Below are positions 52,097-61,422 of a stretch of 64,000 bases of DNA, piece after piece. Under the pieces are notes generated by a model. The model was not told the DNA's origin and did no database searches. It saw nothing but the letters and a program-made list of their open reading frames with translations. The stretch comes from Deferribacteres bacterium (lineage in GTDB: Bacteria > Chrysiogenota > Deferribacteres > Deferribacterales > Geovibrionaceae), in contig JAEWZN010000006.1 of NCBI GenBank assembly GCA_023395255.1, positions 42,468-106,467 on the forward strand. Direction: 5' to 3'. How positions within the stretch are numbered: the first letter of the stretch is position 1; every line of letters begins with the position of its first letter. A program made the position numbers and the translations under genes.

Positions 52097-54640
52097 ATGA
52101 ATAAGTATCTCATTGATGAACCGACACTTGTTGTGTTGCCGACACTAGCCCGAAAAATAGGGCTGAATGAAGCTATCCTTCTTCAGCAAATTCACTACTG
52201 GCTAAGGTCGTCAAGGCATGTGCAAGATGGTCATCGCTGGATATACAATACCTATGCCGATTGGTTGTCACAGCTACCGTATTTAACTTTAATTACACTA
52301 CGAAGAACAATTCAAGGTCTTGAATCTCAAGGGATAGTTATCTCAACAATAGAATTCAATACTGGTGTGAATAAAACCAAATGGTATAGAATCGACTATC
52401 AGAAACTACAAAGTAAAACAGGGCTTCCTGCCCATTCAGGTTTACTGATTGATGAATATCCTTTGATTTTTCAACCTTCGCTTGCCGCAGCTTTAGGACT
52501 GAATGAGGCAATATTCCTTCAACAGCTTCAATACTGGCTTACTCAAAGCGAAAAATATCGGGACGATAAAGCATGGATAGCAAAAAGCCGTGAAAAATGG
52601 CTTTCTGAGTTTCCGTTCTGGAGTTTAAGCACTTTCAAAAGAATCGTTAAGAGTCTTACAGATAAGGGAATAATATACAATACTGAACAGTATAATGAGG
52701 ATAAAACTACGCAAACAAGATGGTTTGCTATCTGCTACGATAAAATCCCTGCAAAGTTTATGGGTTTTGAAGAGATAAAGGCGGCTCAATGTGAACATTC
52801 AGAGGTTCAAAAGGAGCAGACGGAGGTTCATATTGAGCAGTCGGAGGTTCATATTGAGCAGTATGGAGGTTCAAAAGGAGCAGAACCGCGGTTCATATTG
52901 AGCAGTTCCTCTATATATACAGAGACTGATCCAGAGACTATAACAGAGACTGATAGATCTTCTGAGATTAACGATACTGATAAGAACACAATTGTGGAAA
53001 AGTCTAATGATTTTGTAGTGAAAGTGGGTGAGTCTGCTTCTTCTGCTGAAGAATTATCCACTGATGTTGAAAAATCTTCTGCTGACAAAGGTCAGAAATC
53101 GATTCTTAGAGGAGATGGCGGTGAAAAGAAGGTTAACGGGCGCGAAGAGGTTGACCCCCCTCTTAAAAACGAAATTTCGGCTTTGCTCCATAAGGCAATT
53201 TCTTATTACACTGAACTTGTTGTAGGAGCTAAAGCTCCGGAAAGGAAAGTCAAACGATATTCTGACATGGTTGAAAAAGCTGTTTTTGAGCATGGCATTG
53301 ATGTGATTGATAAAATATTTGATGAAGTTAAACGTTCTGATTACCTGCTTGGGTTCCATGACTTTAAATTCACGTTTCCATGGTATATCAAGAACGCTGA
53401 AAAGATTCTTTCCGGTGAGTACAAAACATTTAAGGGAAGTAAGTACGATAAAGCACAGACGTGCAATGCTGAGAGCAGAACATGCAGGCCTACAACTGAA
53501 ACTAAGCAGCCTGATGAAATGTGCCGCTATTGTATACGCTGGCAAAACAGAACCGCGCCTGAGCAGGAAAAAGCACGAACCCCGCAGGAAATAGCTGATG
53601 ATTGCCACAAGGCATTTCAGAAACTTCCCACTCCACAGAGAAGGAAGCTTCATTGCCCGGTCGAAGGCGGCAGAACAGCCCATGATTTCTGCAAATTATG
53701 TCCTATGAAAAAAGCCGATAAAGCAGCGGAGTTTCATGAAGAGGCCGCAAAATGCTTTGAGCGATGCTCCGGCATGTGCGGAGTAAAAATATTATCGCAT
53801 CCTGCATTTGATTATTGTGCGTATTGCCCCGGCAATACGCCTCCGAAGCCCAGGGGAAAGAAAAGTAAAAAAAGCCCCGAAGGATCAGTTCAGGCAACTA
53901 CAGGTATTATTTCAGCAGACAGGAATGATTCCGGTGATATATGGGCAAAGGCTTTTCAGTGGTTTCAGGACAAAAAGAAGACTGTCAGCGGCTATCTAAG
54001 AAAATATATGCCTTTTACGACTTACACTGAAGAGGATCTTCTTGATGAAGCTCTGACTGTTGCTTATGAAACACTGATGCCGATGATTGCTGCTCACGAT
54101 AGTGTGAGGAAATCTGTATTTGAAAGCCATTTCTGGATGAATCTTGATCATCGTTTAACACGTATGCAGACCATACCGGCCGTATGTGATGTAATGGGTG
54201 ACTCTGGAAGAGATAATAAAAGCGCATGTGTATTTTATGAAATAAACACTGAAAATAACGATTTCGCCGAATATGATTCACTGAAGGCGGAGCCTTCTGT
54301 GATTGAAGATATTCACGAAACTGAGTTTAAAGAAATTTTGTTGAGTGTGCTTCCTCTGACAGAGGAAGAGATTTTAAAGTATCAATTGGGTCTGACGGAC
54401 CGTGGAAAACTGAGTATTGTGGAGATTGCCTTGATACTTGGATATTCAAAGCAGAATATTTCAAAGAAAAGAAAATCTGCTATGCAGATACTTGAGCGTT
54501 TTGTAAAGAAATATAAAATTACCCCGGCTACTAAGCCGGATGATTTAAGAAAATTTGCGGAAGAGTTTTCAAAAGAAATCTTTAAGCCGGTATCGGCTTA
54601 TAAAATCTTTGAGCTGGGGAACCTTTTAAAGACAGGATAA
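52097..54640 (+). CDS. 847-aa fusion: two replication-type winged helices, Cys-rich block, sigma-factor-like C terminus
   Basis: Residues 1-108 and 112-215 are tandem copies of a winged-helix domain (LARKIGLNEAILLQQIHYWL; LAAALGLNEAIFLQQLQYWL), a type found at the start of phage and plasmid replication proteins. A low-complexity Ser/Asp/Glu linker follows, then a helical RepO-like region (~355-440). Next is a Cys-rich block (~455-580) containing the HCPVEGGRTAHDFC motif shared with the protein at 50432. From ~630, TYTEEDLLDEALTVAYETL resembles sigma-70 region 2 and LSIVEIALILGYSKQNISKKRKSAM resembles region 4. Probably controls replication or transfer of the element. Domain limits are approximate; the fusion is unusual. 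Confidence 0.8.
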   Translation: MNKYLIDEPTLVVLPTLARKIGLNEAILLQQIHYWLRSSRHVQDGHRWIYNTYADWLSQLPYLTLITLRRTIQGLESQGIVISTIEFNTGVNKTKWYRIDYQKLQSKTGLPAHSGLLIDEYPLIFQPSLAAALGLNEAIFLQQLQYWLTQSEKYRDDKAWIAKSREKWLSEFPFWSLSTFKRIVKSLTDKGIIYNTEQYNEDKTTQTRWFAICYDKIPAKFMGFEEIKAAQCEHSEVQKEQTEVHIEQSEVHIEQYGGSKGAEPRFILSSSSIYTETDPETITETDRSSEINDTDKNTIVEKSNDFVVKVGESASSAEELSTDVEKSSADKGQKSILRGDGGEKKVNGREEVDPPLKNEISALLHKAISYYTELVVGAKAPERKVKRYSDMVEKAVFEHGIDVIDKIFDEVKRSDYLLGFHDFKFTFPWYIKNAEKILSGEYKTFKGSKYDKAQTCNAESRTCRPTTETKQPDEMCRYCIRWQNRTAPEQEKARTPQEIADDCHKAFQKLPTPQRRKLHCPVEGGRTAHDFCKLCPMKKADKAAEFHEEAAKCFERCSGMCGVKILSHPAFDYCAYCPGNTPPKPRGKKSKKSPEGSVQATTGIISADRNDSGDIWAKAFQWFQDKKKTVSGYLRKYMPFTTYTEEDLLDEALTVAYETLMPMIAAHDSVRKSVFESHFWMNLDHRLTRMQTIPAVCDVMGDSGRDNKSACVFYEINTENNDFAEYDSLKAEPSVIEDIHETEFKEILLSVLPLTEEEILKYQLGLTDRGKLSIVEIALILGYSKQNISKKRKSAMQILERFVKKYKITPATKPDDLRKFAEEFSKEIFKPVSAYKIFELGNLLKTG

Positions 54641-54666
54641 AAAAACGGGAGCCCGAAGGCTCCCGT
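54639..54666 (-). terminator. Strong minus-strand terminator of the intron-like RNA
   Basis: ACGGGAGCC-TTCG-GGCTCCCGT followed by seven T on the minus strand. It abuts the stop codon of the 847-aa gene on the other strand. On the plus strand no T-run follows, so the intended transcript is the leftward one, yet no leftward gene exists for more than a kilobase. Confidence 0.9.
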
Positions 54667-54699
54667 GAGGCAGACATGTGTCAGAACATGTCCGGTCTG

Positions 54700-55304
54700 C
54701 TAAAACCAAATTCCCATAAGAATGATGGGCTTAGATCCCTTCGGCCAGCCGCCTTTTCAGCAGCTCATCTGTCCTTCCCTTACCCGTTGAGGATGCCACT
54801 CCCCTCCAGTGCCGCAGGCTCTTAACCTGTACGGTCGGACGCAGACGTAATACTTTCGTACAGGGCTTACTACGGATCCTCCGTGTCCTGCCTGACAGTA
54901 TCAGACAGGTTCCATCCCCGATTCAGACAACGCACCAGCAGCTTTCTTGCCTCGATGCTGTGAGCTCTTACCTCACACCCCCCAAATAACACCTTAGATG
55001 GCTCCTGTGCTTTGATTTTCAGCGCCGGCACTTATGCCGGCTTTAATGCAGTTTTCGGGCTACGAAGTGTCACAGATCGCCTTACTCGCACATACTCATC
55101 AAAGTTTCAGACGGAGCTTTCTCTCGTCATCATAGTGTTTCGGGTCGCCCTTGCGGGCTTTAAACCGGCTGCTCTAACTGCTAAGTTTTCCGGATGACCA
55201 GTCCGTTATTCCCCGCAGCCGCCGGTTCCCTTGCACGTTAACACAGCTTCTGATGAAGCTTTTGTTCCCGTGGCCAAAAGGGTGTCTGTCTTATCCAGGC
55301 GCAC
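54700..55304 (-). ncRNA. Group II intron 5' half (domains I to III-like)
   Basis: On the minus strand this begins GTGCGCC at 55304, matching the GUGYG 5' end of group II introns. It continues with a dense series of complementary arms, and contains GGATCCGTAGTAAG (54866-54879) after an ACGGA arm, a form typical of intron cores just before domain IV. No reverse transcriptase frame is present: the only open stretch after this part is a few codons (TDELLKRRLAEGI). The right-hand end is uncertain. The transcript would end at the terminator at 54639-54666. Call based on recognised motifs, not on a covariance model. Confidence 0.65.
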
Positions 55305-55359
55305 CGCTTCCTGAGTGAAAAATTAGTGCTTTCTTCGCCTTTTATAAAGGCTTTTATGA

Positions 55360-55457
55360 TGTGAACTCAACTCAGAGTCACACCCCGCCGCATGGGCAGG
55401 TAGCTCCTCTGAGCTGGTTCCCGAACCGGACGTGCGAGTTTCCTTCGCATCCGGCTC
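55360..55457 (-). ncRNA. Group II intron domain V and domain VI, upstream of the 5' half
   Basis: Domain V (55423-55457, 35 nt, minus strand) begins GAGCCGGATGCGA and ends CGCACGTCCGGTTC, with a GAAA tetraloop between them. The catalytic AGC, the two-base bulge region and the GTTC end are all as in active introns. A longer imperfect hairpin follows (CAGCTCAGAG pairs with CTCTGAGTTG), fitting domain VI with a possible branch-point A in GTGTGAC. In a normal intron these domains follow domain I; here they precede the GTGCGCC start by ~60-120 nt on the same strand. Confidence 0.8.
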
Positions 55458-55990
55458 TCCGGCCCATCCTTATTCCGCAAATAGCAAATGGTTTCTTCGC
55501 AGCCGGTCTTGCTGCGGTACATGCGGACTTCGGATTTCTTCTTACCGGGAAAAATGGTTTTAGCAAACCAGGCAGGCAATCTATGTCATCAGCTCTATGA
55601 GCTGCTGTTTTGGGGATTGCGCCCATGACTTCAGTTCCATGTGACTACATGAATTTTCCTCCTAGGTGACGGCTTCCCGCCGTAATAAAGGAACTGAATC
55701 CTGAGCAATCCCCCTTCAGTGTGCATAACTTCCGGCTATGCCGGACATCATAGATGAAAATGGAAGGGTTAATCTGTGGGAACTTAATCCCTATGGGACT
55801 CCTCTCTTTCCGAGAGCTGCTTTCCGCAGCGATGGAGTTTCCTGCTGTCCGCAGGAGAAAAAGTGAACATCTATGACGTTCTAAATATCCTCCGCATACG
55901 CTCCGGTCAAGCGCAAAGTACCTTTACGCTTATCCACTTCTTTTATAGGTCGTAATTGTTTAATACAATTACGTTCTTTTTAATCGTTCG
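55458..55990 (-). ncRNA. Structured leader of the intron-like RNA, no gene
   Basis: About 530 nt without a credible frame. Strong nested complementarity: GGGGATTGC (55612-55620) with GCAATCCCC (55705-55713), enclosing CTTCAGTTCC (55629-55638) with GGAACTGAA (55690-55698). Several short GAAA/GGAAA-loop hairpins lie at ~55805-55860. At ~55950-55975 a perfect CGTAATTGT/ACAATTACG palindrome sits near the divergent start region. Probably the 5' part of the same leftward transcript, possibly domain IV material. Confidence 0.5.
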
Positions 55991-56028
55991 GTAAATGTGT
56001 ATTTGCTACACAAATACTTTGTTTCATG

Positions 56029-56047: not shown

Positions 56048-57073
56048 ATGAAGATAGATAACAGTTACCCCCTTGTGCGCCGCACACAATTAAATCTGAT
56101 TCTCCGGAATTCTTTCAGAAACGGTGAATTGTATGAAATCATGAACCGTCAGGCTTTCCGCACTATGGCGGATAAGCTGACTGAGAAATACTTTTACCGT
56201 TCCGGCACGGTTATATATGAAGAAATGAATGAATTATTTCGGGCCTACCTTTGCTTGGCGCCGTTCATTCAGAAAATGCGAAATTCATTTAAGCTTGACT
56301 GGACACGCTGGCACGCAGTAAGCCGCCTGCGCCGTTTTTTTGGCGGGAACCCTGCTTACGAATACTATAAAAAAACCGTTTATCAGCGTGCTCACGATGT
56401 GGAACTGCTTTCATCGAAACTCAGACAGCACGGAATTACTGATGCCAAATTCCTTGAGTTCCTCACTGAAAAATATCTCTGCTTCTGGGGAGCAGAGGGG
56501 TTAAAAGGCAGTCTTGCAAACTGCATATTCGATCCTTTCTTTTTCTCTGTGAAAGGATCCGGGTTAAGGGTTGGGAACACGGTTATTGAGGTTTCTGCCA
56601 GATACTCTGAAGGCTGTAGTTCCATTACGAAGATTCCGCTTGAAATACTGTCATACAGCATAGCGGTCAGCAATAAAAAACGAAGATACGTTACTGTTGA
56701 ACTTACTCAGGATGCAATTAACAGTTTTAAGGAATCTGTGGAAGCTGTTTTGAATAAAAGCTGCTCTGATGCCTATAAAGTCGGACTGCTTCTTTCTCTT
56801 AATGCTCAGTTTCTTGAGCGTAGCCGTTACGCAAAGGATGCTCTGGAGCAGATACAGGAGCTGAAAAGCTGGGCTGTAAAACACATGAAACCCCACGCTG
56901 CCCGAAGTAAAGACTTCGGAGATATAGCGGGACAAATCCTTAAAGATTTTATAGAAAACAATGCCGGCTACTTCGCTTATAAGCAGTCTAATTTCTTCTG
57001 GAACAAAGATTATTCAGACATTCCCGAAAAAACGTACCTAGTTTATTTCAGTCCTTACAGGGAGGAAGCATGA
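56048..57073 (+). CDS. 341-aa protein of unknown function
   Basis: From ATG 56048 (MKIDNSYPLVRRTQLNLILRN); the frame is open to 55997. The ribosome site is weak. The product is soluble, basic and mostly helical, rich in aromatic and Arg residues (LDWTRWHAVSRLRRFFGGNPAYEYYKK), with a ~40-residue beta-like stretch (SGLRVGNTVIEVSARYSEG). No family recognised. It overlaps the next gene by 4 nt, forming a two-gene unit, and is divergent to the intron-like RNA. Confidence 0.65.
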   Translation: MKIDNSYPLVRRTQLNLILRNSFRNGELYEIMNRQAFRTMADKLTEKYFYRSGTVIYEEMNELFRAYLCLAPFIQKMRNSFKLDWTRWHAVSRLRRFFGGNPAYEYYKKTVYQRAHDVELLSSKLRQHGITDAKFLEFLTEKYLCFWGAEGLKGSLANCIFDPFFFSVKGSGLRVGNTVIEVSARYSEGCSSITKIPLEILSYSIAVSNKKRRYVTVELTQDAINSFKESVEAVLNKSCSDAYKVGLLLSLNAQFLERSRYAKDALEQIQELKSWAVKHMKPHAARSKDFGDIAGQILKDFIENNAGYFAYKQSNFFWNKDYSDIPEKTYLVYFSPYREEA

Positions 57074-57486
57074 GGCTTTACAGATACCGTAAAGATTTAG
57101 GACGAAGTGATTTGTATGTACTGCACCATATCAGAAAAGGTTTCAGAAAAATGATTGAAGCAGAACGGCTTCAGGTAATGTTTGCCGGTGAATGCTTTGA
57201 GCAGCTCAAGCTTCCGGCATGGCGCAGAGTGTCGCCGCTCAGGTATGAACTGGGCACGGTTAAATGGAGACCTGTTCACATCACTGTTATCCGCAACTGT
57301 GATGTGAAGAAGATTGCAGAATACCTTTCATTTCCGAAAACGAATGTTCTCAACACTCTTTTTTCTTTTTCAGCTCTGCCTGTTGCGGCCGCAGAGCAGT
57401 CAGGTGATATTCAGAAATTTAAGTCTGATTTTGTTTATAAAAACATAGTCTGCTATGCAGTTGTTACTCAAGCAGTTTTCAGGTGA
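57070..57486 (+). CDS. 138-aa protein of unknown function, coupled to previous gene
   Basis: Starts within the stop of the 341-aa gene (ATGA) after GGGAGG. Basic, with an Arg/Lys-rich N terminus (MRLYRYRKDLGRSDLYVLHHIRKGFRKM), suggesting nucleic-acid contact. Ends before a 9-bp inverted repeat at 57487-57522. Not recognised. Confidence 0.7.
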   Translation: MRLYRYRKDLGRSDLYVLHHIRKGFRKMIEAERLQVMFAGECFEQLKLPAWRRVSPLRYELGTVKWRPVHITVIRNCDVKKIAEYLSFPKTNVLNTLFSFSALPVAAAEQSGDIQKFKSDFVYKNIVCYAVVTQAVFR

Positions 57487-60734: not shown

Positions 60735-61067
60735 TTAATCTGTATCCACAAGCTGTTCGGGGTCAAGTTCAAGAGCCGCGGCAAGTTTTTCAATCGTTGA
60801 GTTTCTTGGGTTCTCTGCCTTTTCCATCTGAGAAAGTGCCGCTTGGGTGATTCCCGCCCTTGCGGCAACTTCCTTCTGAGACAGACCTTTATAAATTCTC
60901 CATGCTTTCAGCAGATTGCAGTCTTTCTCAACGGATATTCCTACAACATCATGCGGAATTGTGATTCTATGTTCTTTTGTCATCTCAAGATATTGCCTAT
61001 AAGGAATAACTGCAAAAGTCGGGGTATCACCCTGATATATAATTTGTGCATCAATAAGTGTTTTCAT
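60735..61067 (-). CDS. Antitoxin with Phd-like N terminus and XRE HTH
   Basis: A 110-aa protein. The first ~35 residues (TLIDAQIIYQGDTPTFAVIPYRQYLEM) look like a Phd/YefM-type strand-helix, and the C-terminal ~60 are an HTH_3 domain (WRIYKGLSQKEVAARAGITQAALSQMEKAENPRNSTIEKLAAALELDP). It follows the toxin gene with 17-nt overlap, the HigBA order. It should neutralise the toxin and repress its promoter. Confidence 0.87.
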   Translation of the reverse strand: MKTLIDAQIIYQGDTPTFAVIPYRQYLEMTKEHRITIPHDVVGISVEKDCNLLKAWRIYKGLSQKEVAARAGITQAALSQMEKAENPRNSTIEKLAAALELDPEQLVDTD

Positions 61068-61302
61068 CTCTTTTTCTTACCTCCTCAATGTTGATTATTT
61101 CGAGGTTTTCACTGAAAATTACTCTGTATCTTTTCACCTTCAGCCTATAAAGGTTATCGTAACCAACAAGCTTTTTGACATTGCGGCATTCCGGAAAACT
61201 TTCAAGTTTCTGAACAGAGAAATAAATTTCTTCTCTTGTTTTAGCGTCCTTAATCTTTTTAAGCTGTCTATAAGCCTTCGGTGTCCATTCTATTGTTCTC
61301 AT
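61051..61302 (-). CDS. RelE/ParE-superfamily toxin
   Basis: An 83-aa protein: MRTIEWTPKAYRQLKKIKDAKTREEIYFSVQKL, then VKKLVGYDNLYRLKVKRYRVIFS shows the family's basic beta-sheet and the YRLKV..YRVIF end, as in RelE-type ribosome-dependent mRNA interferases. The ATG at 61302 fits the family start; a GTG at 61317 is also in frame. First gene of the toxin-antitoxin unit, divergent from the transfer operon. Confidence 0.87.
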   Translation of the reverse strand: MRTIEWTPKAYRQLKKIKDAKTREEIYFSVQKLESFPECRNVKKLVGYDNLYRLKVKRYRVIFSENLEIINIEEVRKRDENTY

Positions 61303-61422
61303 AAGTAAAGATAACACCTGTATAAGACTTCGACAAGTATTTACTTATATTCTCTATATAATCCAAACAGTAGACCTCCTTAGCCATTAAGAGAGTAAGG
61401 AAACTTACATAGGAGGTTTTTC

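What the first reader, a model, noticed from the sequence alone, without database searches (positions are those of the whole stretch)
54639..55457. Circularly permuted group II intron-like RNA in a conjugative element
Seen: on the minus strand a complete group II domain V (55423-55457; GAGCCGGATGCGA ... GAAA loop ... CGCACGTCCGGTTC) and a domain VI-like hairpin come first. About 60-120 nt later follow a GUGYG-type 5' end (GTGCGCC at 55304) and domain I-III-like structure with GGATCCGTAGTAAG, and the RNA ends at a perfect terminator at 54639-54666. No reverse transcriptase is present. Known: normal group II introns have the order I-VI; naturally permuted bacterial group II introns with V-VI before I have been described and release circular RNA. 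Inference: splicing here would circularise the ~50-60 nt between domain VI and GTGCGCC, which itself holds a GCCTTT/AAAGGC hairpin.
Basis: partly seen in the sequence, partly recalled or inferred. Interest (0 to 1): 0.9.

Follow-up and report, generated by a model that had tools for sequence, protein, structure and literature searches.

The report
Back-to-front self-splicing RNA in mobile elements
This bacterial mobile element carries a self-splicing RNA whose parts are in shuffled order, so that it should release a small RNA ring instead of removing itself, and it travels with a neighbouring gene whose protein looks like a disabled version of the enzyme that normally accompanies such introns.

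The parts
54645..54666 (-). intrinsic terminator ending the RNA
   Evidence: 9-bp stem, 7 G-C pairs, followed by a T run
54645..55712 (-). whole conserved RNA with its terminator (5' limit = start of the alignment to the G006 copy; true 5' end not known)
   Evidence: 75% identity to G006 over 54729-55712
55498..55516 (-). 5' hairpin (P2-like), stem CGCAGC/GCTGCG, loop AAGACCG
   Evidence: stem changes on both sides among the three Deferribacterota copies (read by eye)
55423..55457 (-). domain V, AGC triad, AC bulge, GAAA loop, one extra bulged A
   Evidence: RF00029
55361..55422 (-). domain VI; 3' splice site after 55361
55367..55367 (-). bulged branch-point adenosine, 7th nucleotide from the 3' splice site
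55305..55360 (-). linker (3' and 5' exons), predicted 56-nt RNA circle
   Evidence: 14-165 nt in 13 copies
55305..55310 (-). IBS1 GAAGCG
55300..55304 (-). 5' splice site motif GUGCG, start of domain I
55064..55069 (-). EBS1 CACUUC in domain I
   Evidence: 5 of 6 pairs here, 57 of 66 over 11 copies
54769..54925 (-). D2, J2/3 and D3 segment used for model R1
56048..57073 (+). f0: RT/maturase-fold protein, divergent from the RNA (longest frame starts at 55997)
57070..57486 (+). f1: small conserved protein overlapping the end of f0 by 4 nt
   Evidence: f1 in 12 of the 13 sources that have f0

Best explanation
A circularly permuted group II ribozyme with a dedicated, catalytically dead group II reverse-transcriptase-like maturase. 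Transcribed on the minus strand to the terminator at 54645, domain I holds the end of the linker by EBS1-IBS1 pairing; the domain VI adenosine (55367) attacks the phosphate before G55304, and the freed linker end attacks the 3' splice site after 55361. This yields a 56-nt RNA circle and a branched RNA in which the D5-D6 arm is 2'-5' linked to D1-D4. The divergent gene at 56048-57073 encodes a protein with the predicted reverse-transcriptase fold but no YxDD aspartates, which most likely binds and folds this ribozyme in trans. Shown by comparison: permuted order, pairing, covariation, co-inheritance and (predicted) fold. Inferred: catalysis, products and maturase action. Why the element keeps the reaction is open; my guess is that the branched ribonucleoprotein acts on element RNA or DNA by reverse splicing.
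Against: No splicing or expression data. No Rfam D1-D4 hit. EBS1 was first picked from three equally scoring candidates on three copies; pairing is 5 of 6 in the window and only 4 of 6 in the two held-out copies L067, L068 (counted). f0 has no significant sequence link to reverse transcriptases: profile comparison probability 8.8%, E 0.0038 for one comparison; Pfam gave only scattered single-member hits, none an RT, and the PDB profile search only unrelated hits with E 0.2 or worse. G334 has an RNA remnant without f0; G203, G206, G209 have partial f0 without RNA. G375 has two RNA copies and one weak partial f0. Weak D5-D6-like matches lie downstream in two loci: G307 (25.6 bits, 436 nt after the R1 segment) and G061 C12 (22.7 bits, 4.2 kb after); the first could allow ordinary order there.
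Confidence: 0.75

Rival explanations
1. It belongs to the published CP group II (T-large) class by descent: one permutation event, after which the Thermus-type and this type diverged beyond recognition.
Confidence: 0.45
2. The RNA is a fossil: remains of two introns that lie in permuted order by accident.
For: One remnant copy exists (G334, L053). No IEP frame inside the RNA.
Against: 13 copies with the same order, covarying helices and covarying EBS1-IBS1 in 11 of them.
Confidence: 0.03
3. f0 is an RT-fold protein with a role of its own (for example in element replication or defence), linked to the RNA only by riding on the same element.
For: No significant sequence link to maturases; RT folds occur in defence proteins (DRT9, retrons among the rows).
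Against: Group II or group II-like RTs fill the top 9 rows, ahead of DGR and DRT9; f0 stays with the RNA across Deferribacterota elements and Geomonas-class integrase elements that otherwise differ.
Confidence: 0.2

Closest known systems
CP group II ribozymes, formerly T-large RNA (Roth et al. 2021, PMC8637638)
   Same: Order D5-D6-linker-D1-D4, internal reversed splice sites, short variable linker, bulged A in D6, EBS1 in a conserved loop of D1, 5' hairpins, no ORF in the RNA, a protein gene often beside it and divergent in Thermus
   Different: A-Y or C-Y bulge in D5 instead of UN; GUGCG instead of GGGCG; linker up to 165 nt instead of 15-86; the D5-D6 model does not find ten loci of that class; f0 without detectable sequence link to AcpG; other hosts and elements
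Canonical bacterial group II introns with LtrA-type IEP
   Same: D5-D6 (R2 finds 5 of 6 loci), 5' GUGCG, 3' AY, RT/maturase fold of the partner protein
   Different: Domain order; products; protein outside the RNA, on the other strand and without YxDD aspartates
Trans-acting maturases such as plastid MatK (recalled; only the start of the abstract of PMC13172542 seen in the listing)
   Same: RT-derived protein used for splicing (recalled)
   Different: f0 stands beside one permuted RNA in bacterial mobile elements and has no recognisable maturase sequence

Membership tests
group II intron ribozyme | D5 with AGC triad, two-nt bulge and GNRA-type loop | tested here: met
   (49.3 bits); the script looked for AGCC, so its presence in 11 of 11 is partly by choice
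group II intron ribozyme | D6 with bulged adenosine 7-8 nt from the 3' splice site | tested here: met
   A 55367; 11 of 11 aligned copies (motif used to find them), and in L067, L068 found by R2
group II intron ribozyme | 5' GUGYG and 3' AY | tested here: met
   GUGCG in 12 of 13, GUACG in G306; AC in 11, AU in L067 and L068
group II intron ribozyme | EBS1-IBS1 pairing | tested here: met
   weaker in two held-out copies
group II intron ribozyme | match to an Rfam D1-D4 model | tested here: inconclusive
   none; one clear and one below-cut-off hit on 6 canonical loci, some with short 5' sequence
CP group II (T-large) class | order D5-D6-D1-D2-D3 | tested here: met
   13 of 15 R1 hits
CP group II (T-large) class | class-specific D5 (UN bulge) and GGGCG 5' end | tested here: not met
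   A-Y or C-Y bulge and GUGCG; class values from the paper
CP group II (T-large) class | P2-D2 loop pseudoknot | tested here: inconclusive
   5' hairpins present; by eye their loops pair with D1 rather than D2, and the automatic scan, which looked at D1 only, was mixed
CP group II (T-large) class | in vitro circle and branched product | not testable with these tools
   needs RNA
group II RT/maturase (f0) | RT palm-thumb fold | tested here: met
   [not shown]
group II RT/maturase (f0) | YxDD catalytic aspartates | tested here: not met
   0 of 21 (motifs printed); the alignment to YADD is my reading
group II RT/maturase (f0) | sequence similarity to RVT_1 or LtrA | tested here: not met
   no RT family; probability 8.8%
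AcpG | sequence homology to AcpG | tested here: not met

The most novel reading that the evidence does not exclude
Group II introns have been circularly permuted more than once, and each time the intron-encoded RT lost catalysis and became a divergent, stand-alone maturase of a back-splicing ribozyme; AcpG, for which the 2021 paper found no relative, is the more degraded example. The conserved trio (RNA, f0, f1) would then be a new kind of RNA-protein module that mobile elements carry for its branched or circular RNA.
Probability: 0.35. Interest if true: 0.9.

Novelty: new variant of a known kind. Interest (0 to 1): 0.8.

Why it matters
The 2021 paper left open what CP group II ribozymes do and whether a protein helps them in the cell, and found no relative for AcpG. 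A lineage with a covarying back-splice site and a constant partner of RT/maturase fold makes that directly testable: purify f0, add it to the RNA, look for circles. It also shows a route by which a retroelement protein could turn into a splicing factor, the step assumed for the spliceosomal Prp8 (recalled; Prp8 appears in the fold list).

Tried and rejected
Plasmid DNA search found only short D5-like matches in 4 records. f0 gave no plasmid or viral hit; a 34-base D1 pattern gave no viral hit. In one search the matches in G048 and G010 were short and not this RNA. I looked by eye for the CP RNA of pPNAP05 in two gaps and did not place it; only whole-record scans are used. BLASTP and profile comparison of f0 with AcpG failed, as did AcpG with LtrA. 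Loop-loop pairs between 5' hairpins and D1 (GACC/GGUC, UAGCCA/UGGCUA, UUGCCA/UGGCAA) were read by eye; the scan supports some copies and not others, so they are a lead only. For EBS1, one search gave three equally good candidates on the first three copies; the choice was made after more copies were seen. The tRNA 3'-end repeat that would mark the far end was found in 3 of 10 loci tested. Absence of other families from the fold lists is not used.

Label error: the script printed the two positions one residue too early; I re-read the printed motifs, which have Asn (20) or Ser (1) at the first Asp-equivalent position and no Asp at either.

Full report
What is there. On the minus strand, RF00029 matches 55361-55459 with 49.3 bits, the only Rfam gathering hit in the window. 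The D5 has the AGC triad, an AC bulge, a GAAA loop and one extra bulged A. D6 follows with a single bulged A at 55367, the seventh nucleotide from the 3' splice site at 55361. After a 56-nt linker comes GUGCGCCUGGAUAAG (55304) and about 600 nt with D1-D3 features, then a terminator at 54645-54666. One promoter-like site was found, on the other strand, against 2.3 expected.

Is the order real and kept? The RNA lies at the same place in two genomes of one family, G006 (75% identity over 998 columns) and G005 (80% over 579 and 73% over 244), next to the same 847-aa-type, ParM-like and f0 genes. P0006, 49% identical to f0, is named Dacet_0537 of Denitrovibrio acetiphilus, on a contig as long as that of G006 (3,222,077 bases), so G006 is probably that species and the family Deferribacterota. 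The single scan of species genomes for the 3' half of D5, 61-121 nt, then GTGCGNCNNGATA returned 3 loci (a Geobacteraceae MAG, Geomonas oryzae S43, a Trichlorobacter MAG), and all 3 share this RNA. The scan did not return Denitrovibrio; the tool says near records may be left out.

A model of the D2-D3 segment (R1, built from window, G005, G006 and those three) found RNA in 8 of 277 genomes of the class of Geomonas, in 2 of 50 of the window's side (G005 and G006 again) and in 4 of 395 of the larger phylum of Geomonas, two of them new, G362 and G375. That makes 15 R1 hits with the window, 6 of them in the model by construction. D5-D6 stands upstream of D1-D3 in 13: eleven read in full, and L067 and L068 (G362, G375), in neither model, where R2 finds D5-D6 on the same strand about 465 and 447 nt before the R1 segment (counted). 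G334 is a remnant without D5; the second G375 copy was not examined.

Covariation. On the 11-sequence D5-D6 alignment, 95.1% of 371 cells pair, 22 of 35 pairs change on both sides, and none of 500 shuffles reaches any of the five measures; slid versions pair at most 37.8%. The structure came from the same alignment, which favours it over slid versions. EBS1 (GACACUUCGUA loop here) pairs with the six nucleotides before GUGCG in all 11 copies with 5 or 6 Watson-Crick pairs: 57 of 66; shuffling partners gives a mean of 49.6, and 0.035% of 20,000 shuffles reach 57; neighbouring offsets give 9-30. On the first three copies EBS1 was one of three equal candidates, so the site was chosen with later copies in view. 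Compensatory changes are A-U to G-C at IBS position 2 (the three Deferribacterota copies against the eight others), A-U to G-C at position 3 (G306) and U-A to C-G at position 5 (G204). Relatedness is not corrected for. In the two held-out copies I count 4 of 6 pairs from the sequences.

The D5 bulge is AC in 8 and AU in 1 of the 11 aligned copies, CC in G204, CU in G306 (read), and CC and CU in L067 and L068.

The partner genes. Divergent from the RNA stands f0 (56048-57073, +) and, overlapping it by 4 nt in the window, f1. Clustering of ORFs in 15 sources (the window and 14 loci, of which two are contigs of one genome) puts f0 in 13 and f1 in 12. In the 277 genomes RNA is in 8, f0 in 10, both in 7; Fisher p 4e-11, kinship not corrected. 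The f0-only genomes G203, G206 and G209 have partial proteins; the RNA-only genome has a partial RNA. Orientation is divergent in 10 of 10 measured loci, 521-1601 nt from D5 to the f0 start, and in G362 and G375 by coordinates; G307 has the two on separate contigs. The f0 family is small: 12 protein clusters in the first search, 14 in the profile search, both limited to proteins sharing short words with the query.

Relation to the published class. Roth et al. 2021 (PMC8637638; I read parts 1-6 of 9 of the text, and a term search) described about 290 CP group II RNAs in Thermus, Firmicutes and Proteobacteria, with UN-bulge D5, GGGCG, linkers of 15-86 nt, 5' stems P1/P2, and a protein AcpG of unknown kind; RNAs of five species made circles in vitro. 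The main text names neither Geobacter nor Deferribacter, but Proteobacteria at that time included Geobacter (recalled) and the sequence list could not be read, so overlap is not excluded. The D5-D6 model R2 finds canonical introns in 5 of 6 loci (34-60 bits; the sixth locus ends soon after its protein gene) but none of 10 loci from pTT8, seven other Thermus plasmids and pPNAP05; not all of these are shown to hold a complete CP RNA. RF00029 does not hit pTT8 or pPNAP05 either. R1 finds none of the ten and in the canonical loci only a 20-nt match at E 0.42. My reading of the Thermus D5 and GGGCG start is by eye. I therefore file the RNA as a separate variant of CP group II ribozymes, either independently permuted or long diverged.

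The elements. Of the 12 fetched Geomonas-class loci (L046-L057), 8 have an integrase of one cluster (Pfam PF00589 checked in 2 of them and in Denitrovibrio-type L008), 5 a small protein of cluster f4 (HTH_17 in the one checked), and 9 a tRNA gene, one of them cut by the contig end: Gly in seven and Pro in one of the eight intact ones. In three loci a 23-bp copy of the tRNA-Gly 3' end lies at the far end, 7.8-9.6 kb away. In the window the RNA sits beside ParM-like, TraL, TraE and TraK genes, without a tRNA in the 64 kb. Its constancy across two kinds of element suggests use by mobile elements.

Literature. Searches for 'circularly permuted group II' (14 papers), 'permuted group II intron' (16), T-large, AcpG, and three with group II intron, maturase or back-splicing terms showed, in titles and abstract beginnings, no description of an RT-fold partner or of this lineage; PMC10085705 only cites the 2021 paper (term search). 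Apart from these I read none of the listed papers, and most subscription journals are not in that library.

Noticed in passing
[not shown]
   Followed up: partly
L048, L049, L056: Small elements of 7.8-9.6 kb between tRNA-Gly and a 23-bp copy of its 3' end, carrying integrase, f1 and f0; L056 (G206) has a partial f0 and no RNA hit.
   Followed up: partly
window 57070-57486 (+): f1, a fast-changing protein with an N-terminal HRKD-like motif, overlaps f0 by 4 nt in the window; function unknown, no Pfam hit.
   Followed up: partly
L046:2003-2081 (+): Weak D5-like match (25.6 bits) 436 nt downstream of the R1 segment in G307, without the GAAA loop; looks like a fragment of a different group II intron.
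   Followed up: partly
window 60735-61317 (-): ParE-type toxin with HTH protein inside the conjugative element.
   Followed up: no
window 52097-54640 (+): 847-aa protein with a weak sigma-70-like match near its C terminus, ending beside the RNA's terminator; conserved in G005 and G006. I took it for a replication protein from recall only; no family hit says so.
   Followed up: no
L060:1001-1186: Below-threshold HEARO RNA match (48.8 bits, gathering 83) in a Cupriavidus plasmid that also has a group II intron.
   Followed up: no
L009:7956-8120: The G005 linker is 165 nt, far longer than the 15-86 nt given for known CP ribozymes.
   Followed up: no
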